Of a stretch of 34,019 bases of DNA, positions 1 through 27,044 are shown piece after piece (position 1 is the first letter of the stretch; every line of letters begins with the position of its first letter). A program made the translations under genes and the position numbers. This stretch comes from a virus, in the IMG/VR virus record IMGVR_UViG_3300023210_000116, positions 1-34,019 of that record; one strand, 5' to 3'. Under the pieces are notes generated by a model, which was given only the letters and a program-made list of their open reading frames with translations, was not told the DNA's origin and made no database searches.

Positions 1-89
1 GTTCTCTCTGTCTCGTTGTACCTCGTTATCATAGAACGTATTAATCAGATACGTGGTATGATAACGAGGTACAACGAGACAGAGAGAAC
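1..89. repeat. Long perfect inverted repeat (hairpin) upstream of the terminase genes
   Basis: Bases 1-33 are exactly complementary to bases 57-89. After two mismatches (34-35 against 55-56) six more pairs form (36-41 with 49-54), leaving a loop of about 7 nt. Bases 87-99 form a second small palindrome (AACCAA-A-TTGGTT) that overlaps the distal end of the hairpin. There is no T-tract after it, so it is not a typical terminator. It lies about 40 nt before the first gene of the terminase block, where packaging (pac/cos) sites often lie. Because the left arm starts at base 1, it may continue outside the window. An amplification or assembly fold-back artefact at a contig end is the main alternative. 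Confidence 0.9.
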
Positions 90-128
90 CAAATTGGTTG
101 AAGCTGATGTTAAGGAGGTTAAGGAATA

Positions 129-386
129 GTGGCAATAAGCGATATACCTACAGGCATGAGATATTTGTGGTTGATTGGTTGTGGGTTCATATTGGGGTAT
201 GTCGTCATGGATAACACAATAATGATAATAGGCGATGCTAATACTGGCTTATCTGGCGTGTTGCCGTTGTTGAGGGTTGTTGATATGTTTCATGCAATGG
301 AATCACAGATTGTAGAGGCGGCACAAAGCATGGGTAATGAAATATACGAAAGCATAAGTATGTGTTTTTTAGAAATAGACGAATAA
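129..386 (+). CDS. Small single-span membrane protein, unknown function
   Basis: 85 aa, GTG start preceded by a strong AAGGAGG at 112-118. The stop codon TAA abuts the ATG of the terminase gene, so the two are almost certainly co-translated. Residues about 12-28 (YLWLIGCGFILGYVV) form one membrane segment; the remainder is acidic and probably soluble. Its place directly before the large terminase is where a small terminase subunit often sits, but there is no DNA-binding helix-turn-helix and the membrane segment argues against that role. A holin-like or other membrane role is possible. I do not recognise the family. Confidence 0.7.
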   Translation: MAISDIPTGMRYLWLIGCGFILGYVVMDNTIMIIGDANTGLSGVLPLLRVVDMFHAMESQIVEAAQSMGNEIYESISMCFLEIDE

Positions 387-2297: not shown

Positions 2298-2371
2298 GGC
2301 AGGCAGAGACTAACAACATGAAAGTTTTATAATTCATGGTTTTTTTACGGGGTGAGGAATGAGAAAAGTTA

Positions 2372-5300
2372 TTGAACGGTAAAATTAACCCATACCAACA
2401 TGCAGGTCTTGACCGCACACAAACACGCCTTGAGCAAGGTGATGTATTAAAGGAACTTGCCGTCGCAGAGAGTTCGCATTTTTTATCATGGGGATTCAAT
2501 ACGTTTCCAAATCCAGATGAATTGGTACAGAAAAAGGGTTTGATTGAATATGATAAGATGCGCAAGGATGAACAGGTTACAGCGTGTCAGGAAGCAAAAA
2601 TAAAATCAAGATTATCGACAGGCTATGAAATTAAGGTCGGTTTAGAAGGAAATAAGCTGAGTGAGGAACTGGCTGATTTCATTCGTGACCAACTTGACAG
2701 TATTCAGGGTACATTCAATGCAAAACTCAAAGACATATTAACGGCACGTTATTATGGGTTTTCTATCACAGAGAAAGTCTTTGAGATTATCGAACAGGGT
2801 AGGTTTGAAGGTAAAATTGGACTAAAGAATTTAAAAACAAAGCCACCATTTGATTATGAGTTCAAGACAGATGAATTCCGTAATCTATTGGGCATCGTAA
2901 ACCGCAACACCGCATTCCGTTCTGTAAAAGGACAAGACGAAAGACTTCACGATGTTGGTAGTGAAGGCAATCCGTTTCCGCCGTCAAAGTTTGTTATCTA
3001 TTCCGCAAATAAAGAATTCGGCAATTTCTATGGTCAGTCAGATTTAAGACCAGTATGGAAGGTCTGGTGGTCAAAGAATTTTGTGATGAAGTTCTATAAT
3101 ATTTTCCTTGAACGCTTTGGTATGCCTGCCATTGTTGCAACATATCCAGATAGTGTCGGACAAGATCAAGCGGTGCTTGGTGTAATTGACGACATGTTGA
3201 CCAATTATCAGGCGAAGTCAGGTTTCAGAGTACCAGAGGAAGTAAAGATTGATTTGCTTGAAGCGACCAGAACAGGTAAGCCAACATACGGTGAGGCAAT
3301 AGCATTATATGACCTAAAGATTGCAAGGGGCTTGCTATGTCCAGACATGGCAACACAGGGTGGTGAAAAGGGTGGTAGTTTCGCATTATCAAAACAACGG
3401 TTTTCCTTATTCGTTTTAATCCTTGACGAAATGGGTTATGAGATTGAGGATGTTGTTATGGACGACCAGATAATTAAGCCTTTGATTACTATGAATTACG
3501 GTACTGTGCCAACCGAGTTGTTGCCACATTTCAAGTTCAATTCCATATCAGAAGAAAATGTTGAAATGAAATCTAAGATTATTGACATTCTCATTAAGGC
3601 GGAAGTGGTACATCCAGAGGAAGAATGGATAAGAGATTTCACGAATATTCCAGACCTTGACCCAGTGATTAAGGCAAAGATGGAAGCTGAGAAAAAAGAG
3701 AGGGAAGAAAAAGAGAAAGCAGACCAAAAGGCACTGGTAGATGCAAAGAAAACGGAGGCTCAAAACATAATTCCAGATGCAGACGGTAATGAAGAAACAG
3801 GCAAACAAGATATTAAAGATACTGATGCCAAAAAAGAAGATATTGATAAATCAACGCCATTCGGATGCCAGCATTTTCAAGAGGTATTTGAAGATGATGA
3901 ATTAAGACGACAGCCTAATGTGTTTGAGGAAAAGATACAACCAAAAGAGCTTGCCGACATAATGACTTCATACGAGGACTTTATGCAGGCTGATTTGGAA
4001 CGTGTCACTAAGAAGTGGAAGAAACAAATATTCAGACAGGCAGAATTAATATTTAAGAATGATAATCGCAGAGCAATAAATAAAATGTTTTTGCGTGATA
4101 TAGGTGATTTCAAAAACACTCTGAAAAACTGGCTGGTAAAAATACACCTTGACATGAAGTTTAGGGACACCGATGTATTGAAACGTGCAGGCGAGCCGTT
4201 TGAGACAGAAGCGAAACCAATCCCGAAGCCAATACAGTTTTCACATGAAAGTGTAATTGAATTTGAGATGACACCAGAGTTCGACCCGTGGAAGCCAATG
4301 CCAATAGCACAGTCGTTGACGTTTTTCAATGCAAAGCGTATAGCACGTGTTATTGAAGAAAACGGCAAGAAGAAAGTTATCACATTGGGCAAAGCCAAAG
4401 AGTTGGCATTCTACGATGACACCGCATTTGCCATATCAGGCGTGGAGTCTGCAAACGTATTAAACAAATCAAAGCAGATTATGTTTGATGCCATTGAGAG
4501 TGGCGACCAGAAAACCGCATTCAAGAATCTTGATAATTTGTTTGCACAGTATATTGATGAAGGCGCAATAAGTGAAAACTTACGTGACCCGAATCGTATC
4601 AAAACAATCATCCGCACTAATTCAAATACAGCGGCTAATAGAGGGCGTGACGCTTTATATGATGACCCAGATGTTGACGAATTCGTTCCATTTGTACAAA
4701 TATCTGCAATCATAGACGGGCGAACAACTGAATTCTGTTTGGGTATGGATGGTAAGACATTCAAGAAGGCAGACGTGGAGAGTCCGCCGTTCCATTTCAA
4801 TTGCAGAACTGTACTTGTGCCAGTAACGATAATTGAAGCAGAGGAAGAAAAACCACAGGTATCAGACTTTTCAGATCAGGAAGCCGCTATTCGTGCAGAC
4901 AATGTAAATTCCAAAGGCAATACCAATCCGAGTGCAGTACGTGGTGTTGGATTCGGAGGCACACAGCCAATTAAAAATACACTTGAAATATTTAATCAGG
5001 AAACGCTTGATTTCAAAATGCCGAGTGATACGTTTGTTGCCAGTACGTCGGCAGAGGTAGGCATGTACAATATAAGGGCTTTTGATGCGCCTGTTCTTCA
5101 TATCAGGAATAATGACGAACGTATAATGACCATAGGCAAGATATTGATTAGTTCGGATATACAGCGTCCAGTTATTTCATTGATTAAAGACATGTTCCTT
5201 GAAACTACTGATAACGATGAAGATGTTGAGAGAATACAAGACGGTATATTCCATAATCCAGCCAAAGTTGGTAGCGGTAATATGTTTGCAAATGCGGCGT

Positions 5301-5524
5301 GTTGGGTTTGGAACGGTGAAGGCACTGGTCTTGTAGGTCTTACTGGTGGTGAGCATATCAAATCATTTCACGTAGGTTTGGGTGAGTCAAAAGCAGGCGT
5401 TGGAAAAATAATGTTAAAGCAAGGTCAATCCTTGACAATCCATTACAACTATGACCCGAACACAAAAGGTCAGATATTGAATGGTGCTGAATTTGAGTGT
5501 TCTGTTAAATTTGGATTTGCATAA
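2372..5524 (+). CDS. Portal (Mu gp29/DUF935-like) fused to MuF minor head protein and an extra C-terminal domain
   Basis: 1050 aa. Residues about 45-440 resemble the Mu gp29-like (DUF935) portal: an N-terminal segment NPDELV...YDKMRKDEQVTAC followed by a portal core. A charged, coiled Glu/Lys linker follows (about 430-480). Residues about 740-820 carry the Mu gpF/SPP1 gp7 signature: IIRTNSNTAANRGR, then DGRTTEFC, then PPFHFNCRT with a conserved His and Cys. These portal and minor head proteins are usually separate genes (Mu 29 and 30/F). Residues about 850-1050 form a third, beta-rich region (key segment GLTGGEHIKSFHVGLGES) that I do not recognise. The start is TTG at 2372 with only a weak SD; an 8-codon ORF (ATG at 2359, stop at 2380) overlaps it and may couple translation. 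A start at a later codon is possible. Confidence 0.87.
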   Translation: MNGKINPYQHAGLDRTQTRLEQGDVLKELAVAESSHFLSWGFNTFPNPDELVQKKGLIEYDKMRKDEQVTACQEAKIKSRLSTGYEIKVGLEGNKLSEELADFIRDQLDSIQGTFNAKLKDILTARYYGFSITEKVFEIIEQGRFEGKIGLKNLKTKPPFDYEFKTDEFRNLLGIVNRNTAFRSVKGQDERLHDVGSEGNPFPPSKFVIYSANKEFGNFYGQSDLRPVWKVWWSKNFVMKFYNIFLERFGMPAIVATYPDSVGQDQAVLGVIDDMLTNYQAKSGFRVPEEVKIDLLEATRTGKPTYGEAIALYDLKIARGLLCPDMATQGGEKGGSFALSKQRFSLFVLILDEMGYEIEDVVMDDQIIKPLITMNYGTVPTELLPHFKFNSISEENVEMKSKIIDILIKAEVVHPEEEWIRDFTNIPDLDPVIKAKMEAEKKEREEKEKADQKALVDAKKTEAQNIIPDADGNEETGKQDIKDTDAKKEDIDKSTPFGCQHFQEVFEDDELRRQPNVFEEKIQPKELADIMTSYEDFMQADLERVTKKWKKQIFRQAELIFKNDNRRAINKMFLRDIGDFKNTLKNWLVKIHLDMKFRDTDVLKRAGEPFETEAKPIPKPIQFSHESVIEFEMTPEFDPWKPMPIAQSLTFFNAKRIARVIEENGKKKVITLGKAKELAFYDDTAFAISGVESANVLNKSKQIMFDAIESGDQKTAFKNLDNLFAQYIDEGAISENLRDPNRIKTIIRTNSNTAANRGRDALYDDPDVDEFVPFVQISAIIDGRTTEFCLGMDGKTFKKADVESPPFHFNCRTVLVPVTIIEAEEEKPQVSDFSDQEAAIRADNVNSKGNTNPSAVRGVGFGGTQPIKNTLEIFNQETLDFKMPSDTFVASTSAEVGMYNIRAFDAPVLHIRNNDERIMTIGKILISSDIQRPVISLIKDMFLETTDNDEDVERIQDGIFHNPAKVGSGNMFANAACWVWNGEGTGLVGLTGGEHIKSFHVGLGESKAGVGKIMLKQGQSLTIHYNYDPNTKGQILNGAEFECSVKFGFA

Positions 5525-5533
5525 AATAAAATC

Positions 5534-6838
5534 ATGGGTGTTATTTTAAACAAATTAACATTAGCTGTTGCGGCTTTTCTTGCCGATGAAAATTCTGAAC
5601 AGACAGGGATTGTTAGCAATCCACTCGAAGTCCAAGATTCACAGTCTTTGGTTGATTCAAAGGGTCGGTTGCGTCATTCTAATTTTATGGGTACAGGGAA
5701 TGATCCACCCGAAACGATATTTGATACAAAGCAGATTGTTGATAATAACCCTCTTTTTTGGGACGATCAAGAGGTTTCGGGTGGAAGTACAACGAGTGTT
5801 CATTCTGTAAATAAGGCATGTAGTACGTTAGGGGTTGCGTTAAATACTGCGGGGGTCAGGGTACGTCAGACATACATGTGGCATAATTACCAACCCGCGA
5901 AGATTCAGCATGTTATCCAGACAGGGGTGTTGATTTCATTAGGTGGCGGTTCGGGAATAAAGTCATATATAGGACAGTTAAACGATGATAATGGGTTGGC
6001 ACTTTTTTATGACGAGGGAACTATCAAGTCTCTTATTAGAACGAAAACAAGTGGTAGTGTTGTCAATAATACACAAGACAGAGCCGATTGGGATGACCCG
6101 ATGGATGGAAGTGGTAGGTCGGGGCTAAACTTAGATTTATTATCAGAGGAACGCATTTTCGGTATTACTTACGGATGGCTAGGGGTAGACGTAGTTCTTT
6201 TCTGGACAAAGGCAAATGGCGAGTTATATGTTTATAATTCAATGGTTACTGATGCAGGGATTCAAGTGCCTTATATGTCGTCACCAAATTTACCTTTAAG
6301 GTTTAGCATTGAAAATGATGGTACTGGCGTGGCAAGTGAGATGGTACATGCCTGTTCAACCATTATATCGGAGGGCGGTACACAAAAATTAGGGGCTTTA
6401 AGGCATAACGATTCGGGCGCAATAACGGGGTTGTCAGTGGGAACAACTTATGCGGTATTAGGGATGCGTCTTAAAGCCACGCAGTTGGGTATCTCGGTAT
6501 TGATAGAGGCAATATCGGCACTGGCTACGACTCAAAACGATCAGGCGCATTGGGATTTAGTTTTAAATCCCAACATTGCTGGTACGTTTACGTATGTAGA
6601 CCAAACAAATAGTGCTGTTCAAATTGCTACGGGTGCGGCAGAAAATACAATTACTAATGGCACACAGATAGATGGAGGGTATTTTTCTACTGTTGCACCA
6701 ATAAGCCTTGAAGCAGAGAATGCAATTAGGCTTGGCTCAAAAATAGATGGCACACCCGATGAAATAGTGGCGGTGGTAACCCCAATTACTAATAATATTG
6801 CCGTTCACATGTCAAAGACTCGAAGGGAATTAAATTGA
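5534..6838 (+). CDS. Beta-rich virion structural protein, probably fibre or decoration type
   Basis: 434 aa, rich in Gly, Ser, Thr and Asn, without membrane segments. The central part (residues about 80-270) has a pattern I associate from memory with beta-sandwich virion proteins in phage and large-virus genomes: a TTSVHSVNKACSTL segment, RQTYMWHNYQPAK, YGWLGVDVV, then YMSSPNLPLRFSIEND and a conserved CSTIISEGG. That resemblance is not checked. The first 80 residues look like an adaptor for virion attachment. It lies 9 nt after the portal-MuF gene but has almost no SD (TAAAATAAAATC), so translation may be coupled to the upstream gene. A receptor-binding or capsid-decoration role is inferred from position and composition. 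Confidence 0.6.
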   Translation: MGVILNKLTLAVAAFLADENSEQTGIVSNPLEVQDSQSLVDSKGRLRHSNFMGTGNDPPETIFDTKQIVDNNPLFWDDQEVSGGSTTSVHSVNKACSTLGVALNTAGVRVRQTYMWHNYQPAKIQHVIQTGVLISLGGGSGIKSYIGQLNDDNGLALFYDEGTIKSLIRTKTSGSVVNNTQDRADWDDPMDGSGRSGLNLDLLSEERIFGITYGWLGVDVVLFWTKANGELYVYNSMVTDAGIQVPYMSSPNLPLRFSIENDGTGVASEMVHACSTIISEGGTQKLGALRHNDSGAITGLSVGTTYAVLGMRLKATQLGISVLIEAISALATTQNDQAHWDLVLNPNIAGTFTYVDQTNSAVQIATGAAENTITNGTQIDGGYFSTVAPISLEAENAIRLGSKIDGTPDEIVAVVTPITNNIAVHMSKTRRELN

Positions 6839-10016: not shown

Positions 10017-13000
10017 ATGCAAGGAACACAATTAAGAGAATACGGTGTAGCGGCTACAATTAACTTTGATTTATTTGAAGTCGATGGAGTTGATTTTAGG
10101 GTTGATGCGGTAGCCGCTAGTGGTGACACAAAAATAATGAAAGACGAAGGTGTGGAAGCTAACGCCGCCAATAATTTTGTTGACGAAGGTAATGGTTATT
10201 CTCTTTCTTTGACAGCAGAAGAATTGACGGTTGCAAGGCTTGTTATTTATTTAATTGATGCAACTGCAACAAAAGTTTGGCTTGATAAAAGTATTATCAT
10301 TGAAACTTATGGAAATGCGTCGGCACAACACGCAATGAATTTTAATGATGCTGTTCGTGGTGGCATGATGGCATTGCCAAACGCAAATGCAGATGCCGCA
10401 GGTGGATTGCCAATTTCAGATACGGGTGGTCTTGACTTGGACGCAATGAATACTAACATTAATGATATTGAAACAGCAACGGGAGTTATAAGCGGTGACA
10501 CGGCGGCGATACTCGTTGACACAGGAACTACGTTAGACGGAAAGATTGACACAATAGATACGGAAGTCGGGTTGATTAGTGGTGACGTAGCACTTGTTCT
10601 GGTAGATACCGCAGATATGCAACCGAAGTTGGGAAGTCCTGTATCGGATATTTCGGCGGATATTGCAACAGTGAAAACCGAGACAGGTGTTATTAGTGGA
10701 GATACCGCCGCTATATTGGTTGACACGAATTCACTGAATGATACGAAGGTTCCAGACATAATTTCATTGGCAAATATTAATGCTGAATGTGATACGGCGA
10801 TTTCAGATGCGGCATTGGCAACGGCGGCAAATCTTGCAATCGTTGATACGGAAGTCGGTCTTGTCAGTGGTGACACGGCGGCTATCTTAGTTGATACAAA
10901 TGAAATGCAGGGCAAATTGCCTGCAAACAATATAATGGGTAGTTCGGTTACTACGGACAAGGATGATGAAATAGATGCAATCAAGGCTGTAACTGACAAC
11001 TTACCAAATAGTGGTTCATTAACCGATTTAGCAACCACTCTTGCAGAGGTCAGGCATGTGAGTGGCGACTTGGCTATTGTCAGTGGCGATGTCGTTGTCA
11101 TTGATACGGAAGTTGGGTTGGTCAGTGGCGATGTTGCCGCAATCTTGGTAGATACTGCAGAGATTGGTACGGCTGGTGATGGTCTGACTGATTTGGGCGG
11201 AATGGGTACAATAATGAAGGCAGAGGTTCAGGTTGAATGTGATGATGCTTTGGTTGCCAGAAAATTAGATCATTTAATGGATGTAGCCGTAGCCAATACA
11301 GATGTTGCGGACGATTCAGTCATTGCGAAAATGACAGCCAGTGGTGCAACGGCGGATTTTGATACATTTGATAATAAATCTGATTCGTTAGAAGCATTGG
11401 CAGATGCAACGACAGCTTCCGCACCAACGGTGGTACAGATAAGAGAGGAAATGGATAGTGGCTCTGTTCAGTTGGCACAAATTAGTGGTGACACCGCCGC
11501 AATCCTTGTAGATACGGGAACTACACTGGACGGCAAGATTGATACGATTGATTCAAATATTGATACGACTCTTGCAGAGGTCAGGCATTTAAGTGGCGAT
11601 CTTTTGATTGTTAGTGGTGACGTAGTGAGTGCGCTTGCAGATACAAATGAGATGCAAGGCAAGTTACCAACAAATAACATAATGGGTTCAAGTGTTAAAA
11701 CCGATAAAGATGACGAAATAGATTCAATTAAAGGTGTCACTGATAATATTCCAGATTCGGGTTCAATGAATGATTTGGCGACGACTCTTGGAGAGGCAAG
11801 ACATATCAGTGGCGACTTAACGGTTGTCAGTGGCGACGTTGTGGTAATTGATACAGAGGTTGGATTAATCAGTGGCGATACCGCAGAAATCGGAATAGCA
11901 GGTGCAGGTTTGACAGGTCTTGGTGGAATGTCTGCGACTATGCAAAATCAAGTTGAGTCTGAGGTTGATGACGCTTTGGTTGGGAGGGGTCTTGACCATT
12001 TGATTAATGCGGCGGTAGCCAATACAGATATAGCCGATAATTCAATCATTGCAAAGATGACGGCGAGTGGGGCGACAGCCGATTTTGATAATTATGATAA
12101 TACTACTGATTCGCTAGAAGCAATTTCAGACACTCAGAGTTCAATAGCACCAACGGCGGTACAGATCAGGCAGGAAATGGATAGTAATTCTGTGCAATTA
12201 ATACAGATTAGCGGTGATACTGCGGCGGTTCTCGTTGATACCAGCACAACGCTTGATACAAAAATTGATGATATACAAGGCGCAGGTTTTGCGTCTGGTG
12301 ATGATAGTCTGGCGGCAATAAGGGCAAGAGGTGATGCGGCGTGGGGTAGTGGAGATACATCGAATGTTCCAACAGCCGTAGAGAACAGGCAAGAGATGGA
12401 TAGTAACTCTGTTCAACTTGCACAGATAAGTGGCGACACAGCCTCTATTCTGGTGGACACTGGCACAACCTTAAATAATAAGATCGACACCATTGACACC
12501 GAGGTTGGGCTTGTAAGTGGTGACGTTGCGTTGATTCTGGTAGATACAGGCACTACACTTGATGGTAAGATAGACACCATTGATGCAGAAGTCGGTTTAA
12601 TCAGTGGAGATACTGCACAACTGAAAACAGAGTCCGCTTTAATTAGTGGCGACGTTGCGGCAATCCTTGTGGACACTGGAACAACTTTGGATGGCAAGAT
12701 AGACACCATAGATACTGAGGTTGGTTTAATCAGTGGTGATACTACGGCGATCTTAACAGATACCGCAGACATGCAACCTAAACTTGGAAGTCCTGTATCG
12801 GACATTTCGGCAGACATAGCGACTATTGACACAGAGGTTGGTTTGATTAAAACGGAAACGGGTGTTATCAGTGGAGATGTTGCAGGGCTTGACGGTGCGG
12901 CAATGAGGGGTACAGATAGTGCGTCATTGGCGACGGTTTGTACTGAGGGTAGACTTGCAGAACTGGACGCTGGAAACATACCAGCGACAACAGACAGGAA

Positions 13001-13559
13001 TGAAGTTGCATTGGGTGTTATAAGCGGCGATACTGCGGCGATTTTGGTAGACACTGGAACCACTCTTGATACTAAGATTAATACCATTGACACTGAGGTT
13101 GGATTGATTAGTGGAGATACGGCACAGTTAAAAACCGAGTCTGCATTGATAAGCGGAGATGTTGCGGCGATACTCGTTGACACTGGAACCACACTTGATG
13201 GAAAGATTGATACGATAGACACTGAGGTCGGATTGATTAGCGGTGATACTGCGGCAATCAAGATAAAGACTGACGAATTGCCAGATGGTATAAAGAAAAA
13301 TACCGCACTTACGAATTTCACATTCTTCATGGCGAAGTCAAGTGACCATGTAACAGCGCAGACAGGTTTGAGTATTACGTCAGAGAGAAGTCTTGATGGT
13401 GGGGCGTTCGCAGGTACAGCCAATTCCGCAACCGAGATTTCAGATGGATTCTATAAGATCGACTTGGATGCGGCAGATTTGAATGGCGATATCGTAGCTC
13501 TGAGATTTACGGGTACAAATGCAGATGATACCGTGTTGACAATTAAAACCGAGGCATAA
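10017..13559 (+). CDS. Long repetitive tail-fibre-like protein
   Basis: 1180 aa. Residues 1-110 form a non-repetitive, beta-rich head that may attach to the virion. Residues about 150-1090 consist of heptad-like repeats built on SGDTAAILVDTGTTLDGKID, with TEVGL spacers; the core GTTLDGKIDTID occurs five times exactly, with several variants. Embedded in this is a duplicated block of about 200 residues starting EMQGKLP..NNIMGSS (about 10902 and 11651). QPKLGSPVSDISADI also occurs twice. The last 85 residues (ERSLDGGAF, GFYKIDLDAADLNGDIVALRF) form a globular beta tip of a kind seen at the ends of phage fibres. Such shaft repeats normally make a trimeric coiled coil. The gene starts 3 nt after its neighbour. 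Host recognition or a long side fibre is the likely role. Confidence 0.8.
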   Translation: MQGTQLREYGVAATINFDLFEVDGVDFRVDAVAASGDTKIMKDEGVEANAANNFVDEGNGYSLSLTAEELTVARLVIYLIDATATKVWLDKSIIIETYGNASAQHAMNFNDAVRGGMMALPNANADAAGGLPISDTGGLDLDAMNTNINDIETATGVISGDTAAILVDTGTTLDGKIDTIDTEVGLISGDVALVLVDTADMQPKLGSPVSDISADIATVKTETGVISGDTAAILVDTNSLNDTKVPDIISLANINAECDTAISDAALATAANLAIVDTEVGLVSGDTAAILVDTNEMQGKLPANNIMGSSVTTDKDDEIDAIKAVTDNLPNSGSLTDLATTLAEVRHVSGDLAIVSGDVVVIDTEVGLVSGDVAAILVDTAEIGTAGDGLTDLGGMGTIMKAEVQVECDDALVARKLDHLMDVAVANTDVADDSVIAKMTASGATADFDTFDNKSDSLEALADATTASAPTVVQIREEMDSGSVQLAQISGDTAAILVDTGTTLDGKIDTIDSNIDTTLAEVRHLSGDLLIVSGDVVSALADTNEMQGKLPTNNIMGSSVKTDKDDEIDSIKGVTDNIPDSGSMNDLATTLGEARHISGDLTVVSGDVVVIDTEVGLISGDTAEIGIAGAGLTGLGGMSATMQNQVESEVDDALVGRGLDHLINAAVANTDIADNSIIAKMTASGATADFDNYDNTTDSLEAISDTQSSIAPTAVQIRQEMDSNSVQLIQISGDTAAVLVDTSTTLDTKIDDIQGAGFASGDDSLAAIRARGDAAWGSGDTSNVPTAVENRQEMDSNSVQLAQISGDTASILVDTGTTLNNKIDTIDTEVGLVSGDVALILVDTGTTLDGKIDTIDAEVGLISGDTAQLKTESALISGDVAAILVDTGTTLDGKIDTIDTEVGLISGDTTAILTDTADMQPKLGSPVSDISADIATIDTEVGLIKTETGVISGDVAGLDGAAMRGTDSASLATVCTEGRLAELDAGNIPATTDRNEVALGVISGDTAAILVDTGTTLDTKINTIDTEVGLISGDTAQLKTESALISGDVAAILVDTGTTLDGKIDTIDTEVGLISGDTAAIKIKTDELPDGIKKNTALTNFTFFMAKSSDHVTAQTGLSITSERSLDGGAFAGTANSATEISDGFYKIDLDAADLNGDIVALRFTGTNADDTVLTIKTEA
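10902..12280 (+). repeat. Tandem duplication of a roughly 750-bp block inside the fibre gene
   Basis: The block that begins near 10902 (protein EMQGKLPANNIMGSS) and runs to about 11560 is repeated from about 11650 to 12280 (EMQGKLPTNNIMGSS). Shared landmarks in order are TDKDDEID, DLATTL, SGDVVVIDTEVGL, GLDHL or KLDHL, IAKMTASGATADFD, and EMDS.SVQL.QISGDTAA. The proteins remain close while many codons differ at third positions, so the duplication is not recent. A third partial copy of the last motif follows near 12380. Confidence 0.85.
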
Positions 13560-13737: not shown

Positions 13738-14064
13738 ATGAGCTTTTCAGTAGACAAGCAACCAGACGAAACACTAAGATTATTCGCTGATTTTAGAAAT
13801 GATTTGCGGAGTGGTGACAGTATATCGTCTGCAACTTATGTTGTGACATCAGGCGATACAGTGGTTACGGACGCATTGACAGTAAGCGGTTCGGGTCAGA
13901 TTTCAAATGAGAACCCGAACGATGTTCCCAGTGTAAACGACACGGCATCGGTAAAGGTTATTTCTGGTGATTCAGGGGTTTCATACAAATTGACGGTGCT
14001 TGGTTCGTCTGCAAACGGTGAGGTTTTTGAGTCAGATATTAATATTCATGTGCTTGACACATAA
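13738..14064 (+). CDS. Small Ig-like beta domain protein of the virion
   Basis: 108 aa. The start (VDKQPDETLRLFADFRNDLRSGDSI) and end (SYKLTVLGSSANGEVFESDINIHV) match a pattern I associate with small single-domain proteins next to fibre or capsid genes in tailed phages, with alternating strands and no Cys. An Ig-like beta-sandwich that accompanies the fibre or decorates the capsid is likely. It is the last gene before a strong terminator at 14123. The short coding region upstream (13561) is 3 nt away. Confidence 0.6.
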   Translation: MSFSVDKQPDETLRLFADFRNDLRSGDSISSATYVVTSGDTVVTDALTVSGSGQISNENPNDVPSVNDTASVKVISGDSGVSYKLTVLGSSANGEVFESDINIHVLDT

Positions 14065-14122: not shown

Positions 14123-14196
14123 GGGGTGATTCTTTACAGGGAGTGTGGACTTGGTTGGCACATTCTTAGACTGTAATGAATTTCCCCTTTTTTTTT
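14123..14196 (+). terminator. Strong intrinsic terminator before the protease/scaffold gene
   Basis: Bases 14123-14139 (GGGGTGATTCTTTACAG) pair with 14171-14187 (CTGTAATGAATTTCCCC) with few mismatches, extended inward by GAGTGT with ACATTC, and are followed by nine T (14188-14196). The SD GGAG of the next gene begins at once at 14197 and the ATG is at 14209, so there is no room for a separate promoter between. The gene must be reached by read-through or antitermination, or by a promoter that overlaps the structure. Confidence 0.85.
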
Positions 14197-14208
14197 GGAG
14201 TCAAAAAA

Positions 14209-15471
14209 ATGCCGACAAATGACTTTGTAAATATATCCGACATGGAAGTATTTAAAGAAGGCACTCATAATGGTCATAAATTCACACCAGAAGATATTGA
14301 CGGAATCGTAAGTAATTTCAATACCCTTAAAAACCAATTAACACCAAAGGTAAAAATCAGTCATGGAGTCAAGCAAGAATCAATTGCTGGTCTTGCGAGT
14401 TATGGCGATGTCACAAAGGTAGTTTCCAAATCGGTTGATGGTATCAGGAAGATATTTGTTGACTTGACAAATGTTCCAGATCAAGTGGCACAATGGATTA
14501 AGGATAGAAGATTTGGAGAGCGTAGCGTTGAAATATTTCCGAATATAAAAATAGGCGGTAAGAATTTTAAAAATGTTCTGGCAAAGGTGGCATTACTGGG
14601 GCATCAAATACCAGCGGTTGCAGGTATGAGTCCTGTCACGGTAAATCTATCAATAGATAACGAGTTTGAAGAATCGGGTATTGAGATAGAGTCATCCGAT
14701 GTGGCGGAATGTTTTGAATATACATTGGAAGGTAAAGACAATATTGTTATTTTTAACTCTGAAAGTGAGGGTAAATTGGATAAAAAAGTGTTGGATGAAA
14801 TCGCAAGTCTGCAAACACAGATGAAAGGTCTTGAGGGTAAGTTGACTACCGACGAAGGTAAGCAGATGTTTAATGACCTCAAAACCAAACTGGAATCCTT
14901 TGAGAAAAGGGTTGAGGCATCAGAAACAGGTAAGAAGTCAGCGGAAGAAAACGCGATCAAACTGTCAGCCGATAATGAGAAGTTGACAGGCGAAGTTGAT
15001 TCGTACAAGAAAAAAGAAGAAGATGCAATGGTGAAGTTGAAGGCTGAAAAAACTTCAAACTTTGTTGCCGACTTAAAAAAGAACGGCAAGATAACACCAG
15101 CCGTTGAGGAAGAACTAACAATGTTCTTAAATAGCTTAGATGATAGTGATGAAGCATTGGAATTCACTACTAAGTTGCAGGGTGGCGGTGATGTCAAGCA
15201 GAAGTTTACAAGGCTTGAAACCGCAAAACGTATTTTATCACGATTATCAAAAGTAGTTGAGTTTGGCGAACTTGCAGGCGGCGATACCGATTTGGAGAAT
15301 CCAGAAGGTGGCAAGTTAGATAATTTTGTCGAAATTCAGGGTACGACATATCAGGTTGATGGTCTAGCCGAAGAAAAAGCAATCCAGCAGTACATGGTAG
15401 AGAACAAAGTGGGCGAACTGGAAGCTACGAGAGTCATTCTTGACGCAAAAGAAAAAAGGGAAAACAAATAA
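14209..15471 (+). CDS. Mu gpI-like prohead protease with C-terminal scaffold
   Basis: 420 aa from the ATG at 14209, which has SD GGAG at 14197-14200. An in-frame ATG at 14176 lies inside the terminator stem and is unlikely. The N-terminal 150 residues fit the phage I-like/prohead protease family: EGTHNGHKFTPEDID, PKVKISHG with a conserved His, GERSVEIFP with a conserved Ser, and LAKVALLGHQIPAV. Residues about 195-330 form a charged coiled coil (KSAEENAIKLSADNEKLTGE), as expected for a fused internal scaffold that is degraded during head maturation. A short Gly/Asp-rich tail follows. In Mu the I gene precedes the capsid gene, as here. The catalytic residue assignment is by analogy. Confidence 0.85.
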   Translation: MPTNDFVNISDMEVFKEGTHNGHKFTPEDIDGIVSNFNTLKNQLTPKVKISHGVKQESIAGLASYGDVTKVVSKSVDGIRKIFVDLTNVPDQVAQWIKDRRFGERSVEIFPNIKIGGKNFKNVLAKVALLGHQIPAVAGMSPVTVNLSIDNEFEESGIEIESSDVAECFEYTLEGKDNIVIFNSESEGKLDKKVLDEIASLQTQMKGLEGKLTTDEGKQMFNDLKTKLESFEKRVEASETGKKSAEENAIKLSADNEKLTGEVDSYKKKEEDAMVKLKAEKTSNFVADLKKNGKITPAVEEELTMFLNSLDDSDEALEFTTKLQGGGDVKQKFTRLETAKRILSRLSKVVEFGELAGGDTDLENPEGGKLDNFVEIQGTTYQVDGLAEEKAIQQYMVENKVGELEATRVILDAKEKRENK

Positions 15472-19694: not shown

Positions 19695-20903
19695 ATGTCG
19701 AAAATCCTCATTGTCGCAGAAAATCCCCGTTTGGACACAGGACAAGCAAGAATTGGAAGAACCGTTGCTGACGCATTATCCAAAGTAGGTCATGGTATCT
19801 TGTATCTTGCATGGTGTCCCTCAGAAATAAATCTCAATAGAAAATTTAGATACAACGTCATTTATTCGCAAACCAAAGCTGGTAGTGATATATTTGACCA
19901 GACCGTAATGAAAGAACGTCCAGACATTGTGCTTACAATAGGCGATTGCTGGAATTTTGATTATATAAATATGTGTAAGACAAGAGGCTTGTTTTATTAC
20001 ATGATGTATACGGCAGTTGATGGTATTGGTTATAGCGGTGGAGTGCCAAAGCACTTTGAAGATTATATTGGCGGTGCTGATTATGTGGTGACGTATACAG
20101 AGTATGGCAGAAGGGCGGTATTGAAAACCATGCCGTATTTTGAAAATCGAATTGCTATGATATATCATGGTATTGACGATAAGGTTTATCACAGACTTCC
20201 AGACGAAGTGGTCAAGGAAAAGGTAAACAGATTTAATCCTCAGAAGAAATTTATGTTCCTCTATTCAGGGCGAACACATTTCAGAAAGAATTTCATTCAT
20301 ATCATAAAGGCATACAGGATTTATATTGACCGTACAGGTGACAATGAATCTGGTTTATGGTTAAATGTCAATTTCAAGGATAGTGTGGGGCATGACGTTA
20401 ATAAACTAATACTGGAATATGGTTTAAAAGGCAGAATACATGCGTTTGATTACGCCGTTAATAATAAGTCTGCAATTAGGCTGATGCCAGAGGAAGAATA
20501 TGTTGCACTGTTAAATATGTGTAATTGCGTTGTCAGTGTTGGTGGTGAAGGCTTTGGGTACTTAATAGCGGAAGCGTTTATGGCAAAGACACATGTGATA
20601 ACACTGGGTGATTCTGCTACGGGTGAACTTGGTGCGGCTGGCAGGGCGAGGCTTATAAAGCCAGAGGGACATTTGGCAGTAACAGGTATGGAGTTGACAG
20701 AAAGACCTTTTCCGAATCCAAAGGAAATTGCAAAGGCAATGATTGAAGCGAGGAAGGGCAAGAATAAAGAATACATTGACAAAGCATATAAGTGGGCGAT
20801 GGAAAACCTTTCACAATCAAAGGTTGACAGGGATTGGAAACGTCTGCTTAATAAGATTGAACACCCACTTGATTATCCTGTTGTTATGGAGGTTCCGAAA
20901 TGA
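19695..20903 (+). CDS. GT4-family glycosyltransferase (GT-B fold)
   Basis: 402 aa. The N-terminal half begins SKILIVAENPRLDTGQARIGRTV, as in GT4 enzymes that approach a Gly-rich acceptor loop. The C-terminal half has the donor-binding strand FLYSGRTHFRKN (about residues 187-198) and the diagnostic GGEGFGYLIAEAFM (about 284-297) with the two Glu that contact the nucleotide sugar. No membrane segment; cytoplasmic. SD AGAGAGG lies at 19676-19682. This is the first gene of a block of sugar and radical SAM enzymes between tail genes. Donor and acceptor are unknown. It is only loosely similar to the second GT4 gene at 20983. Confidence 0.8.
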   Translation: MSKILIVAENPRLDTGQARIGRTVADALSKVGHGILYLAWCPSEINLNRKFRYNVIYSQTKAGSDIFDQTVMKERPDIVLTIGDCWNFDYINMCKTRGLFYYMMYTAVDGIGYSGGVPKHFEDYIGGADYVVTYTEYGRRAVLKTMPYFENRIAMIYHGIDDKVYHRLPDEVVKEKVNRFNPQKKFMFLYSGRTHFRKNFIHIIKAYRIYIDRTGDNESGLWLNVNFKDSVGHDVNKLILEYGLKGRIHAFDYAVNNKSAIRLMPEEEYVALLNMCNCVVSVGGEGFGYLIAEAFMAKTHVITLGDSATGELGAAGRARLIKPEGHLAVTGMELTERPFPNPKEIAKAMIEARKGKNKEYIDKAYKWAMENLSQSKVDRDWKRLLNKIEHPLDYPVVMEVPK

Positions 20904-20986
20904 AGCAATTAAAAGGGAGTAAAAATTGTGTGGCATGGAAGTTAGAAAAACAGAAGAATCGAAATTACATGTGGGGGTTTAAATGA
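20900..20986 (+). CDS. Micro-ORF bridging two glycosyltransferase genes
   Basis: 28 codons. Its ATG overlaps the TGA of the upstream glycosyltransferase and its own TGA overlaps the ATG of the downstream one (ATGA on both sides), so it fills the gap exactly. The peptide is basic (MKQLKGSKNCVAWKLEKQ). A leader or coupling element is as likely as a functional peptide. Confidence 0.4.
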   Translation: MKQLKGSKNCVAWKLEKQKNRNYMWGFK

Positions 20987-22083
20987 AATACGCATTAAAT
21001 TGGTATGGTGCTATAGCTGGTCAATCTGGCTACGAATTAATAACACGTGAGATATTACTTGCCCTTGATAAGTTGGGTGTGACGGTATCGTTCAAGCATA
21101 TCGACAAATGGAACAAAGAGAGAATTTCGGTGTCCAGTGATGTAGCTACACGGTTGGAACGTATGGCGAGAATGCCAATGATACCAGATGCGCCTTTGGT
21201 TGTGATGCAGAAATGGCATGAAGGAATGCCAGAAACCGACAAAGACGTGTATATATATTCGCTTTTTGAAACCGATAGAATCCCAACGGATTGGATTGAT
21301 GGATTTAAGAAAGCAAAAAAGGTGTTTACATTCAGTAAGTTCAATCGGGATGCGTGGAATATGTATATCAAAGGCGTGACACGGCTTGGATTTGGCATGA
21401 CAGATAGTTTCAGGTATGAAAAAGGTGTTGCAAATATATTAAATGCAAAGGGTTACAAGTTTATAACCGTTGGCGATTATACTGAACGGAAAGGATTTGA
21501 TGTATTATTAGACGCTTATGCCGAAGAATTTAGTGCAAATGATGACGTGACGTTGATTATGAAGGTACATAGAGGTGGCTTTACAGCCACGCACAAGGAG
21601 TTGTTGCGCCGAGACATACAAACGTACCTCAGTCGACATAAAGACGTGCCACGTGTCCTGTTGTGGATGGATAAAGTACAGTATGACGACTTGCCAAAGC
21701 TGTATAACGCCTGTGATTGTTTTGTGCTACCGAGTAGAGGCGAGGGATTGGGCTTGCCAGTTGCCGAAGCAATGGCGTGTGGCTTGCCTGTAATCGTTAC
21801 AGACGGCGGTGGTTATATGGATTTCGTTGAAAATGGTGTTAATGGTTTGACTGTTAGCTGTAGAGAACAGTTGGTTGACAGTGTTAATTATATTGGTAAG
21901 TGTCCACAGGCGTTGAATCATAAATGGCTTGAACCAGATAAAGGTGATTTGAGAAAGAAAATGAGAGAGGCTTTTACAGATCGCACACGTATGGTAATGA
22001 TGGGAACAAAAGGAAAACAACAGATGTTTGACATGCACTGGAAAGACGTTGCTTTGCAGTTAACTAAGGAGATTTTTGAATGA
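20983..22083 (+). CDS. GT4-family glycosyltransferase (GT-B fold)
   Basis: 366 aa. Starts MKYALNWYGAIAGQSGYELITREILLAL, a common beginning of GT4 enzymes with the acceptor Gly loop. VGDYTERKGFDVLLDAY (about residues 163-179) marks the donor domain and SRGEGLGLPVAEAMACGLPVIVTDGGG (about 251-277) is the nucleotide-sugar motif. VFTFSKFNRDAW precedes the interdomain linker. Cytoplasmic, no membrane segment. SD GGGGG lies about 8 nt before the ATG, and the start also overlaps the micro-ORF before it. The sugar donor is unknown. Confidence 0.87.
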   Translation: MKYALNWYGAIAGQSGYELITREILLALDKLGVTVSFKHIDKWNKERISVSSDVATRLERMARMPMIPDAPLVVMQKWHEGMPETDKDVYIYSLFETDRIPTDWIDGFKKAKKVFTFSKFNRDAWNMYIKGVTRLGFGMTDSFRYEKGVANILNAKGYKFITVGDYTERKGFDVLLDAYAEEFSANDDVTLIMKVHRGGFTATHKELLRRDIQTYLSRHKDVPRVLLWMDKVQYDDLPKLYNACDCFVLPSRGEGLGLPVAEAMACGLPVIVTDGGGYMDFVENGVNGLTVSCREQLVDSVNYIGKCPQALNHKWLEPDKGDLRKKMREAFTDRTRMVMMGTKGKQQMFDMHWKDVALQLTKEIFE

Positions 22084-22096
22084 AAAGGGGTGGACA

Positions 22097-22327
22097 GTGG
22101 ATAGTATGAATGAAACAAATATTGAACTGGTAGAATTAACTGGCGATGATTTTAAGGCAGAAGTGGCACTCTTATCTATTGAGAAACGAGTTTATATGAC
22201 AAAACTTGCAGAAGTAGAAAATTGTAATAGCGATCTTAAACAGGAAAACGAAGGTTTATACAAAAAAGCAGATGAAAGAGAAGCGGTAATTTTGGAACTA
22301 CAGAAAAAATGCGGTATTGTTAAATAA
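22097..22327 (+). CDS. Small coiled-coil protein
   Basis: 76 aa from the GTG at 22097, with SD AAAAGGGG at 22083-22090. ATG at 22106 is a possible alternative, as it overlaps the stop of a 9-codon ORF that starts at the end of the upstream gene (22080). Residues about 25-70 form one long coiled coil (VENCNSDLKQENEGLYKKAD, EREAVILELQKK). No enzyme motif. Its stop overlaps the start of the next small ORF. Function unknown; small size and coupling may suggest a partner of a neighbouring enzyme. Confidence 0.55.
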   Translation: MDSMNETNIELVELTGDDFKAEVALLSIEKRVYMTKLAEVENCNSDLKQENEGLYKKADEREAVILELQKKCGIVK

Positions 22328-22479
22328 TGGAAACTCGAAAGGATGAAACGGTATTGAAAAGCGAACATATCTATTCGTGTAAGAATTGGAATCACAGGGT
22401 AAAATTGATATTCAGGTTTATGAAAGCTATTTGGTGTATATTGATATATGGATATGCAAGGGTGACAAGAAATGCTTGA
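22327..22479 (+). CDS. Small membrane-like protein, 50 aa
   Basis: The ATG overlaps the last base of the upstream TAA (TAATG) and the stop overlaps the start of the methyltransferase gene (22472), so it fills the gap exactly. Residues about 28-43 (IFRFMKAIWCILIYGYA) can span or lie on a membrane, with basic residues on both sides. It may tether the neighbouring enzymes to the membrane where lipid-linked sugars are handled (inference). Support is the exact fit and hydrophobic core only. Confidence 0.5.
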   Translation: METRKDETVLKSEHIYSCKNWNHRVKLIFRFMKAIWCILIYGYARVTRNA

Positions 22480-23104
22480 AAGCACATCAGAAGAACATAA
22501 GGATTTAGAAACTTATTTGCAGGTTAAGGCACGTGAGAAAATCCACAAGGATTTACACCTTCAAGATACGATGACTCTTGAAAAGGTTAAAACCTATAAT
22601 CCGTTTAATGATAGCGACAAAAACACACGTGAGGCAATGGAGTGGTTGTATTATGATTCCTTGAGCTTGGCGAGATCAATGGTTGATTTGGGGTGTGGCG
22701 TTGGCTTGCCAACAATGGCAATTGCTTTGCATTTAAACATACCAGTGTTGGCAATAGACGGTTCTAAATTGTTAGTTGGTTTTGCAGAGGCTATGAGAAC
22801 AAAATGTGGAATTGGAAACGTAACATTTCTCAACGCATTAATTGACGATAATTTGAGTGAAGGATTTGATGTTGCTTTTAGTATGCACACCCTTGAGCAT
22901 TTGACTTGTCCAGAAAGAAGCCTGTTGCAAATGAAACGCATTGCAGATACGACGTGTGGAATAGTACCAAAAGAACATGCCAATAATTCAACAGAGCATT
23001 TGTGGCATTGGACAGATGTAGAATTAAGAACACTATTGGTCAAGGTATTCAAAGAGGTTGAGGTAAAAGAGTTTGGAAACCTTTTGGCTTTTGTGGCGAG
23101 ATGA
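22472..23104 (+). CDS. Class I SAM-dependent methyltransferase
   Basis: 210 aa. Motif I MVDLGCGVGLPT (about residues 69-80), acidic residue of motif II in LAIDGSK (about 94-100), motif IV FDVAFSMHTLEHL (about 133-145). This is the pattern of the small UbiE/COQ5-like and sugar or lipid methyltransferases. The 65-residue N-terminal extension is helical and charged. The start overlaps the small ORF before it. In a block of glycosyltransferases the substrate may be a sugar, lipid or peptide; nothing in the sequence shows which. Confidence 0.85.
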   Translation: MLESTSEEHKDLETYLQVKAREKIHKDLHLQDTMTLEKVKTYNPFNDSDKNTREAMEWLYYDSLSLARSMVDLGCGVGLPTMAIALHLNIPVLAIDGSKLLVGFAEAMRTKCGIGNVTFLNALIDDNLSEGFDVAFSMHTLEHLTCPERSLLQMKRIADTTCGIVPKEHANNSTEHLWHWTDVELRTLLVKVFKEVEVKEFGNLLAFVAR

Positions 23105-23259
23105 AGCACACTAATATAATAAACAAGGGCAATGTCACAGTCGTTCAAACGCTTAAATTTACAGGAAACATATTTGAAATAGGAACAGAGAATGTCGAAA
23201 TTAAAAGAATATCTGACAAAGGCGTTGGCTTTTCCAGCGGAGATTCACCTAGAATCTAA
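23101..23259 (+). CDS. Possible small ORF overlapping the radical SAM gene
   Basis: 52 codons beginning ATGA at the methyltransferase stop and ending inside the next gene (overlap of 68 bases). The predicted peptide is a beta-rich alternation (NVTVVQTLKFTGNIFEIG). The overlap with an active-site-bearing gene and lack of an SD make it doubtful; it is listed because the ATGA start fits the pattern of this operon. Confidence 0.25.
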   Translation: MKHTNIINKGNVTVVQTLKFTGNIFEIGTENVEIKRISDKGVGFSSGDSPRI

Positions 23260-24223
23260 TTCGGGATGCAATGCAAGATGTGTGATGTGTCCACGTGATG
23301 GCATGGAAAGGTATCAGGGTGATATGTCACGGGAGTTATTTATCAAGGCGATTGATGAATGTGGTGAACATCCTGAAATGACTTATATACATTTCCACAT
23401 GAGTGGAGAGCCTTTGTTGTTGGACATTGATGAATTGTGTTGGCGTATTAATTATGCCAGAGAGAAAAACCCACAGGAGTTCAGGGGTCATTATGATTTC
23501 CAGCGCAAAGAATTTAAGACACCATCGTTATGCTTTTTCACAAACGGTAGTCTTTTGACTGAGGACAAGATTGAAAAGTTGTTAAAAACTCCATTGGATA
23601 TAATCGTTATCAGCATAGACGGCGGAACCAAAGAGGATTATGAAAAGATTCGGGTGGGATTGAAATTTGAAACTGTTGTGGAAAACGTGAGAAAATTGGT
23701 TGAGCTACGTAATAAAATGGGTAGTGACATGAAGATACAGACCGCCATTGTGCCACAGAAGGCAAATGAAAATTCAGTTGGCTTGTATCATAAATTATTT
23801 CGGGAAATGGGCGTTGATGATGTAGGTGGTTCAGGTGTGCAGAACATCGGGGGCTTGGTTGATTCAGAGTCAATGATATTAGATACACAGTACATGGGCG
23901 GTGATATCAATAGTCCGTGTTGGCGTGTGTTCCTTGATTTGAGTGTGACGGCAGACGGCAAGGCCGTTGTGTGTTGTCAGGATGTCAGGGCGATGGAAGT
24001 AGTCGGTGATTTAAACACTCAGAGTATTAAAGAGATATGGCAACGTGGTCGCATGATGGACATACGCAACATGTTTGCCGTAGGAAGGAAAGATGATATT
24101 CCGTTTTGTGCGAATTGTGATTCAATGAAGTCGATGTGTTTGGGCAATTTCCCACAGTGGAAATTAAGTCCTGAATTCGTCAGAACATTTATTGATGTTT
24201 GTAAAGAATTGGGGGTGTATTGA
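23192..24223 (+). CDS. Radical SAM protein with SPASM-like C-terminus
   Basis: 343 aa. The [4Fe-4S]-SAM motif CxxxCxxC is C26, C30, C33 (GCNARCVMCPR), followed by the GEP motif (SGEP, 71-74). The TIM-barrel strands VISIDGGTKEDYEKIR and IQTAIVPQKAN are in place. The C-terminal 100 residues carry further Cys (SPCWRV about 243, VVCCQD about 261, FCANC about 307, and one about 315) that fit a SPASM or twitch auxiliary cluster domain. Such proteins modify peptides, sugars or cofactors. Here glycosyltransferase neighbours suggest a sugar or glycolipid substrate (inference). SD AGGAACAGAG precedes the ATG. Confidence 0.9.
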   Translation: MSKLKEYLTKALAFPAEIHLESNSGCNARCVMCPRDGMERYQGDMSRELFIKAIDECGEHPEMTYIHFHMSGEPLLLDIDELCWRINYAREKNPQEFRGHYDFQRKEFKTPSLCFFTNGSLLTEDKIEKLLKTPLDIIVISIDGGTKEDYEKIRVGLKFETVVENVRKLVELRNKMGSDMKIQTAIVPQKANENSVGLYHKLFREMGVDDVGGSGVQNIGGLVDSESMILDTQYMGGDINSPCWRVFLDLSVTADGKAVVCCQDVRAMEVVGDLNTQSIKEIWQRGRMMDIRNMFAVGRKDDIPFCANCDSMKSMCLGNFPQWKLSPEFVRTFIDVCKELGVY

Positions 24224-24224
24224 T

Positions 24225-25091
24225 ATGCAAATAGGTCTAATTGATATTGATTCAAAAATTCCTAATATTGCATTAATGAAATTATCTGCCCACCATAAAT
24301 CCCAAGGCGATGACGTCGAATGGTGGAAAGGTGTTTTATTCCATAAAAAGTATGACAAGGTTTATGCAAGTAAAGTGTTTGATTTTACCGAAATGCCCTA
24401 TGACATTCCTGATGATATAGAAATCGGTGGTACTGGCTATGACCTAAAGAAAGAGTTGCCAGATGAAATTGAATATCGTTGTCCTGATTATAGCCTGTAT
24501 CCTGAATGTGATTATTCAATAGGGTTTTATACCAGAGGGTGTATTAGGAAATGTAAATTTTGCAAAGTTCCAGAGAAAGAAGGCGATATTCAATTTCATC
24601 AAAGAATGGATGGGTTTGAAAATATTAATGGTAAATATTGGGTTTTCCTTGATAATAACGTTTTTGCATATAAGAATGTTGAAAGCTTTTTGCAAGAAAT
24701 TATTTATCGTCAAATTAAAATTGACTTTAACCAAGGCACAGATATTAGATTAGTAACGACGCGAATTGCTGAATTAATAGCTAAAATTAAATGGAATACC
24801 TTTTACCGATTTTCATTTGATTGGATTGGCATGTCAGATATTATCAAGGAAAAAGTCCAACTAATATCTTCTTTTGGGCTTAAACCATATAAAATGTTTT
24901 GTTATGTTTTAATTGGATATAATACAACCGAATCAGAGGATATGGATCGCGTAGAATTACTGAGGAATTTAGGCGTTAACCCTTTTGTGATGCCGTATAA
25001 TAAAGCAAACAATTATCAAAAGAAATTTGCAAGATGGGTTAATCATAAGGCAATATTTAAATCGGTGAAATGGGAAAATTATAAGGGGTGA
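24225..25091 (+). CDS. Phage-type radical SAM protein with N-terminal B12-binding-like domain
   Basis: 288 aa. Start chosen at the ATG at 24225, which has SD GGGGGTG at 24211-24217; an upstream in-frame ATG at 24192 lies in the preceding gene. The N-terminus MQIGLIDIDSKIPNIALMKLSAHHKSQGD is characteristic of a family seen in many phages and bacterial genomes, with a degenerate cobalamin-binding-like region. The cluster motif is C106, C110, C113 (GCIRKCKFCKVPEKEG). Its substrate is not established to my knowledge. The gene is distinctly AT-rich in third positions compared with its neighbours, hinting at separate acquisition. Confidence 0.87.
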   Translation: MQIGLIDIDSKIPNIALMKLSAHHKSQGDDVEWWKGVLFHKKYDKVYASKVFDFTEMPYDIPDDIEIGGTGYDLKKELPDEIEYRCPDYSLYPECDYSIGFYTRGCIRKCKFCKVPEKEGDIQFHQRMDGFENINGKYWVFLDNNVFAYKNVESFLQEIIYRQIKIDFNQGTDIRLVTTRIAELIAKIKWNTFYRFSFDWIGMSDIIKEKVQLISSFGLKPYKMFCYVLIGYNTTESEDMDRVELLRNLGVNPFVMPYNKANNYQKKFARWVNHKAIFKSVKWENYKG

Positions 25092-25094
25092 GAT

Positions 25095-25883
25095 ATGCAG
25101 ACGACGAAAATTAAATGGATTAAAACGTCAAAGGTAGAAGAATTGGAATTGTCAAGACTGTGCCTCGGTGGTGGCAAGATGACGGATATGAGCTATGAGG
25201 ATGCACACAAGTTGGTAATCAATGCGACAACGAGTGGTATAAATATATTTGATGCACACCATAGATACGGAAACTGTGAATGGTTACTTGGTAAAATTTA
25301 TGAATTCGACAAGAATTATTTTGGCAAAAAACATGTGATGACAAAGATTTCTGCTTACCTAACATGGACACAGGCACACACCAAGATAATGGAGAGCCTT
25401 GAAAAACTGGGTCGTGAACCGACGATATACTGGGTGTCTGATTTAGACAATGACGAACTGTATAAGAACGGTGAGGATTTATATAATAAATTAAGGGATA
25501 TGCCATTTCGGAAGTTACGTGTTGGTATCACAACGGAGTCCGCAGAGTTGGGGCGCAAGTTTATGTTGAATTATCCTGAGTGTAATTATTTTATGATTCC
25601 ATTGCATATATGCCAACACAAAGGAATGTTTGATTTTGCACGGGAGGTCAAAAACGAAGGCAAGCATTTGTTCATTATAAAGCCGTTCAATGATGGGCGG
25701 TTGCATGGTACAGGTATATCGTTGATAGACAGGCAAGAGATACGGGAATCGTTTGAGGTAATTATGTCAGTTAATCCAGATGTAATTTGTTTCGGAACGA
25801 AAGACGTTGAGCATTTAAAAGAAACTATTGAAATCTTTAATGAGGTATGCGATGGAAATAATAAAGACACCAACACTAAGTGA
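25095..25883 (+). CDS. Aldo/keto reductase-like protein, catalytic His replaced
   Basis: 262 aa, ATG with strong SD AAGGGGTGAG 4 nt after the previous stop. The fold is that of aldo/keto reductases: LSRLCLGGGKM at the start, NIFDAHHRYGNCEWLLG with D53 and Y58, VMTKIS with K84, repeated alpha/beta units, and VNPDVICFGTKDVEHL near the end. The position normally filled by the catalytic His (LHxPD) reads YWVSDLDND, so S115 replaces it. Enzyme activity may therefore be changed or lost, or the protein may be a non-catalytic or radical-SAM-associated partner. Its last 32 bases overlap the next small gene. Confidence 0.82.
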   Translation: MQTTKIKWIKTSKVEELELSRLCLGGGKMTDMSYEDAHKLVINATTSGINIFDAHHRYGNCEWLLGKIYEFDKNYFGKKHVMTKISAYLTWTQAHTKIMESLEKLGREPTIYWVSDLDNDELYKNGEDLYNKLRDMPFRKLRVGITTESAELGRKFMLNYPECNYFMIPLHICQHKGMFDFAREVKNEGKHLFIIKPFNDGRLHGTGISLIDRQEIRESFEVIMSVNPDVICFGTKDVEHLKETIEIFNEVCDGNNKDTNTK

Positions 25884-26951: not shown

Positions 26952-26987
26952 CGTGAATACGCATATATATTTACGAGATGCTAAATC

Positions 26988-27026: not shown

Positions 27027-27044
27027 ATTCAGGGATAAAAAAAT

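What the first reader, a model, noticed from the sequence alone, without database searches (positions are those of the whole stretch)
2372..5524. Portal, MuF and an unknown C-terminal domain in one polypeptide
Mu-like phages normally encode the gp29 portal and the gpF minor head protein separately. Here one 1050-aa ORF carries both, plus about 200 C-terminal residues with no family I recognise. MuF proteins in some phages carry C-terminal toxin domains delivered with the virion, so this extra domain could be structural or an ejected effector.
Basis: partly seen in the sequence, partly recalled or inferred. Interest (0 to 1): 0.6.

Follow-up and report, generated by a model that had tools for sequence, protein, structure and literature searches.

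The report
Fused phage portal–MuF with orphan end
A phage gene really does join the portal ring (the DNA gate of the head) and the MuF minor head protein in one chain, plus a 205-residue end found nowhere else; joins of these two parts are already known, so the open question is only what the extra end does.

Summary
One uninterrupted 1050-aa ORF (2372-5524, +) carries a Mu-type portal (PF06074, residues 60-425), a linker, a MuF domain (PF04233/TIGR01641, about 700-818) and about 205 C-terminal residues matching nothing in Pfam, PHROGs, NCBIfam, PDB, phage or plasmid records, or IMG/VR apart from one near-identical contig. A missed stop or frameshift is very unlikely: a second contig encodes the identical protein, codon usage stays in one frame, and two diverged viral contigs (34% identity) carry the same fusion. 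The fusion is not unprecedented: HSTV-1 gene 3 is portal plus MuF, and Microbacterium clusters EA/EB have it (PMC7302621). C-terminal extensions on MuF proteins are common (PMC5576092). In this lineage the C-terminus varies: orphan here, Cys-rich (zinc-ribbon-like) in the two relatives, HExxH-bearing on separate MuF genes of related phages. The next gene encodes a virion structural protein, not a small immunity-sized ORF, which argues against a classical MuF toxin. Best reading: the fusion hard-wires MuF to the portal inside the capsid, with a lineage-specific accessory module at its end. Structure prediction of the C-terminus failed, so structural versus ejected effector stays open.

The parts
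2372..5524 (+). Fused portal-MuF-orphan C-terminus, 1050 aa, TTG start (start uncertain by a few codons)
2549..3646 (+). Mu-type (DUF935) portal domain, residues 60-425
   Evidence: PF06074 E=1.9e-52; PHROG phrog_113; Foldseek to G20C/P23-45 and Mu portals
3755..3955 (+). Charged, low-confidence linker between portal and MuF, residues about 462-528
   Evidence: pLDDT below 50; composition
3908..4906 (+). MuF (SPP1 gp7-like) region, residues about 513-845; Pfam core 720-815
   Evidence: PF04233 E=8e-8; TIGR01641 E=4e-12; alignments
4907..5521 (+). Orphan C-terminal region, residues 846-1050, with no detectable relative outside a near-identical contig
   Evidence: pLDDT 31 alone, below 50 in full chain
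5534..6838 (+). Next gene: virion structural protein (phrog_1645), 434 aa, 9 bp downstream; context against an immunity gene
14176..15471 (+). Head maturation protease (phrog_976), candidate for processing the fusion
   Evidence: homologue in L008

Best explanation
The ORF is a genuine natural fusion of a Mu-type (DUF935) portal and a MuF (SPP1 gp7-like) minor head protein, ending in a lineage-specific accessory module. Portal subunits form a twelve-fold ring at one vertex and their C-termini face the head interior (established for other portals). Placing MuF after the portal C-terminus therefore fixes MuF inside the capsid at the DNA gate, the place to which separate gp7/MuF proteins are brought by binding the portal. 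This would give up to twelve MuF copies per head unless the chain is cut, for example by the head protease encoded at 14176-15471. The C-terminal ~205 residues ride on MuF as an exchangeable virion-internal module, more likely a structural or DNA/capsid-contacting accessory domain than a dedicated toxin with an immunity gene. Shown here: the single ORF, both domains, conservation of the fusion in three lineages, and unrelated C-termini among them. Inferred: internal location, copy number, processing, and the role of the C-terminus.
For: Both domains above curated cut-offs in one ORF; identical protein in a second contig; same fusion in two contigs at 34% identity; same fusion type in HSTV-1 and Microbacterium phages (PMC7302621); in SPP1 the portal binds gp7 and targets it into the procapsid (PMC6316719); C-termini differ between lineages; the following gene is a virion structural gene here and encodes repetitive fibre-like proteins in L008 and L009.
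Against: No experimental data on this virus. The role of the C-terminus rests on context only: its fold could not be predicted and it has no diverged relatives, so structural versus effector cannot be separated by sequence.
Confidence: 0.6

Rival explanations
1. The C-terminal region is an effector or toxin ejected with the DNA, as proposed for MuF polymorphic toxins and polyvalent proteins, with the portal-MuF part as packaging carrier.
For: About a third of MuF proteins with C-terminal extensions have a recognised toxin domain (PMC5576092); effector domains fused to MuF or portal are described (PMC5512222); related phages carry HExxH-bearing extensions on MuF.
Against: No toxin family matches; next gene is a 434-aa virion structural protein, not an ORF under 150 aa; same pattern of large downstream genes in L008 and L009.
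Confidence: 0.3
2. The fusion is a precursor: a protease separates portal, MuF and C-terminus during head maturation, so the mature parts act as separate proteins.
For: A head maturation protease is encoded at 14176-15471; the linker 462-528 and region 846-895 look disordered; SPP1 carries only 1-2 gp7 per capsid (PMC5576092), which a twelve-fold fusion would exceed.
Against: No cleavage site is known for this protease and no virion data exist. Not exclusive with the best explanation.
Confidence: 0.3
3. Assembly or sequencing error: a missed stop or frameshift joins separate genes.
For: Nearest phages have separate genes.
Against: Identical protein in contig L001; same-frame coding signal across all segments; same fusion in two diverged contigs.
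Confidence: 0.02
4. The C-terminal region is an ordinary, strongly diverged part of the MuF fold.
For: Sequence divergence could hide homology, and no structure is available.
Against: In four of five aligned phages MuF ends a few tens of residues after the PVT motif, and fused relatives have unrelated C-termini there.
Confidence: 0.05

Closest known systems
HSTV-1 (Haloarcula sinaiiensis tailed virus 1) gene 3, NC_021471, 881 aa
   Same: Portal and MuF in one polypeptide, portal first
   Different: HK97-type portal (PF04860), not Mu-type; MuF lies at 741-861 of 881, so no long C-terminal extension
Microbacterium phage subclusters EA3, EA5, EA8 and cluster EB portal-MuF fusions (PMC7302621)
   Same: MuF-like function fused to portal
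   Different: Sequences not examined here; no third region described in the passages read
IMG/VR contigs L008/L046 (3300036766_000466) and L009 (3300033407_000441)
   Same: Mu-type portal fused to MuF, 34% identity, extra C-terminus
   Different: C-terminus is unrelated, with CPYxxC and CxxC motifs
SPP1 gp6/gp7 and Mu gp29/gp30, separate portal and MuF
   Same: Same two head components, adjacent in the genome
   Different: Encoded as separate proteins; gp7 joins the portal by binding (PMC6316719)
MuF polymorphic toxins (PMC5576092)
   Same: MuF domain with a C-terminal extension of more than 100 aa
   Different: No toxin domain and no small downstream immunity-sized ORF here; MuF is fused to a portal

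Membership tests
Mu-type phage portal (PF06074) | Match above the curated cut-off across the profile | tested here: met
   E=1.9e-52, 179 bits against cut-off 23.9, profile 4-335 of 336
MuF / SPP1 gp7 minor head protein | Match above the curated cut-off | tested here: met
   PF04233 33.4 bits against 29.6; TIGR01641 46.5 against 39.65
Portal-MuF fusion protein (HSTV-1 / Microbacterium EA-EB type) | Both domains in one uninterrupted ORF, portal first | tested here: met
   relatives
MuF polymorphic toxin | C-terminal extension of at least 100 aa on a MuF domain | tested here: met
   About 205 aa beyond the MuF end
MuF polymorphic toxin | Recognisable toxin domain in the extension | tested here: not met
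   No match in Pfam, PHROGs or NCBIfam
MuF polymorphic toxin | Small (under 150 aa) immunity-like ORF directly downstream | tested here: not met
   Next gene starts 9 bp on and encodes a 434-aa virion structural protein
MuF polymorphic toxin | Toxic activity and delivery with the virion | not testable with these tools
   Needs expression and virion experiments

The most novel reading that the evidence does not exclude
The C-terminal 155-205 residues are a new domain family carried in up to twelve copies on the portal ring inside the head, either ejected as an uncharacterised effector or forming a new internal portal-vertex structure, with the C-terminus of portal-MuF fusions serving as an exchangeable cargo slot.
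Probability: 0.2. Interest if true: 0.6.

Novelty: new variant of a known kind. Interest (0 to 1): 0.32.

Why it matters
A covalent portal-MuF link makes MuF location and copy number testable by structure: SPP1 carries only one to two gp7 copies per capsid (PMC5576092), whereas a fusion would give up to twelve unless processed. Fusions with two different portal families (Mu-type here, HK97-type in HSTV-1) support the view that MuF works at the portal. The C-termini differ between lineages, which suggests a variable module at a fixed internal site of the virion.

Tried and rejected
Structure of residues 845-1050 alone: pLDDT 31, unusable. Full-chain model: C-terminus below 50, so Foldseek results say nothing about it. 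Searches for relatives of the C-terminus by tblastn in phages and plasmids, by back-translated peptides and by a degenerate WNGxGxG motif gave only the near-identical contig or noise. Prokaryote genome scans with fusion and portal alignments found no relative; these need exact matches to short peptide patterns and are weak for distant relatives. Internal translation starts: ATGs at residues 538 and 898 lie near the MuF and C-terminal boundaries with GAGG upstream, but synonymous-codon shuffles give 2.6 such sites on average against 3 seen, so this is chance level. Similarity of the C-terminus to other window proteins: none. Literature on portal-MuF processing in haloarchaeal viruses: nothing found in the library.

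Full report
Observation. The window is a 34-kb virus contig. ORF 2372-5524 (+) encodes 1050 aa without a stop. Pfam gives Portal_Mu at 60-425 (E=1.9e-52) and Phage_Mu_F at 720-815 (E=8e-8), both above curated cut-offs. PHROGs give portal (phrog_113) and several head-morphogenesis families. NCBIfam gives the SPP1 gp7 domain at 702-818. Nothing significant matches the last ~205 residues in Pfam, PHROGs, NCBIfam, PDB sequences, phage or plasmid records.

Is the fusion real? Contig L001 aligns to the window over 6918 bp at 99.9%; its seven differences all lie at or before position 479 and its 1050-aa protein is identical. A codon-usage model trained on other genes of the window scores portal, linker, MuF and C-terminus as coding in the same frame, with stops in the other two frames. 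Two diverged IMG/VR contigs, L008/L046 (966 aa) and L009 (1010 aa), carry portal and MuF in one ORF at 34% identity; Pfam confirms both domains in each. A missed stop or frameshift is therefore very unlikely.

Relatives with separate genes. The closest annotated phages (Bacillus Finn group, Geobacillus GBK1, Rossellomorea phiT1, Staphylococcus MVC_VPHSA2, Pectobacterium PcaP2EGY) have portal and MuF as neighbouring genes. Their portals are 28-30% and their MuF proteins 22-29% identical to the corresponding parts here. In four of the five the MuF protein ends a few tens of residues after the conserved PPxHxxCR...PVT motif, at about residue 845 here. The remaining ~205 residues are therefore an extension, not an ordinary part of either fold.

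The C-terminus varies. L008 and L009 end in a segment with CPYxxC and CxxC motifs, zinc-ribbon-like by inspection. GBK1 and contigs L026, L031, L032 and L034 have separate MuF genes with extensions of about 300-400 aa holding an HExxH-type motif. The extension here has no detectable relative except in the near-identical contig. AlphaFold2 gave pLDDT 31 for it alone and below 50 in the full chain, while most of the portal (about 50-460) and the MuF core (about 660-805) were predicted with usable confidence. Foldseek matches the portal part to solved G20C/P23-45 and Mu portals; the best viral-library match, A0A516M230 (728 aa), aligns over 795 columns, which suggests but does not prove another fusion.

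Precedent. HSTV-1 gene 3 is annotated 'Portal (N-terminus) and Mu F-like (C-terminus)'; Pfam finds an HK97-type portal and MuF in it, and PHROG portal models phrog_12 and phrog_2662 align through its MuF end. Portal-MuF fusion thus occurs with at least two portal families. Microbacterium phages of subclusters EA3, EA5, EA8 and cluster EB also have MuF fused to the portal (PMC7302621). Extensions on MuF proteins are common, and 34% of extended MuF proteins have a known toxin domain (PMC5576092); effector domains fused to MuF or to portal are described as polyvalent proteins (PMC5512222).

How it probably works. In SPP1 the portal protein gp6 binds gp7 and targets it into the procapsid in few copies; virions without gp7 assemble but only about 25% are infectious (PMC6316719). 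Portal C-termini face the capsid interior in known portals (general knowledge, not tested here). A fusion places MuF there by construction, in up to twelve copies unless a protease, such as the head protease encoded at 14176-15471, cuts the disordered linker. The C-terminal module would then sit inside the head at the portal vertex. These steps are inferred.

Toxin or structure? 89.4% of MuF toxin genes are followed by an ORF under 150 aa, against 25.5% of short MuF genes (PMC5576092). Here the next gene begins 9 bp later and encodes a 434-aa phrog_1645 virion structural protein with relatives mainly in cyanophages; in L008 and L009 the next gene encodes a repetitive fibre-like protein. This, with the absence of any toxin-family match, tilts towards an accessory structural module but does not exclude an effector.

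Verdict. Observation confirmed; interpretation partly supported. The arrangement is a new variant of a known kind, with one open point: the identity of the 205-residue end.

Noticed in passing
window 19695-28412: Between neck and tail genes lies a block of non-structural genes: two phrog_2170 glycosyltransferase-like, a methyltransferase, three radical SAM proteins (one with a B12-binding domain), a weak aldo/keto reductase and a GT9-like protein. It looks like a surface-sugar or nucleotide modification cassette carried by the phage.
   Followed up: partly
window 10017-13559: An 1180-aa protein built of degenerate repeats such as 'ISGDTAAILVDTGTTLDGKIDTIDTEVG', fibre-like by inspection, followed at 13738-14064 by a Gp77-type fibre-tail adaptor (PF23148).
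   Followed up: partly
L008:12900-15704 and L009:5116-6357: The genes after the fused portal-MuF in both relatives encode repetitive SGD-rich fibre-like proteins, unrelated by BLASTP to window proteins but in the same genomic position.
   Followed up: partly
L001:1-637 versus window 1-381: The near-identical contig L001 departs from the window upstream of position 382, and its seven differences cluster in the first 100 bases after that point, which suggests a recombination or assembly junction there.
   Followed up: no
L026, L031, L032, L034 (separate MuF genes), and GBK1 (L004): Separate MuF genes of related phages carry long C-terminal extensions with an HExxH-type motif that Pfam does not recognise, possible metallopeptidases.
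   Followed up: no
window 2359-2382: A seven-codon reading frame ATG AGA AAA GTT ATT GAA CGG TAA overlaps the TTG start of the fusion gene at 2372; may be meaningless or a leader.
   Followed up: no
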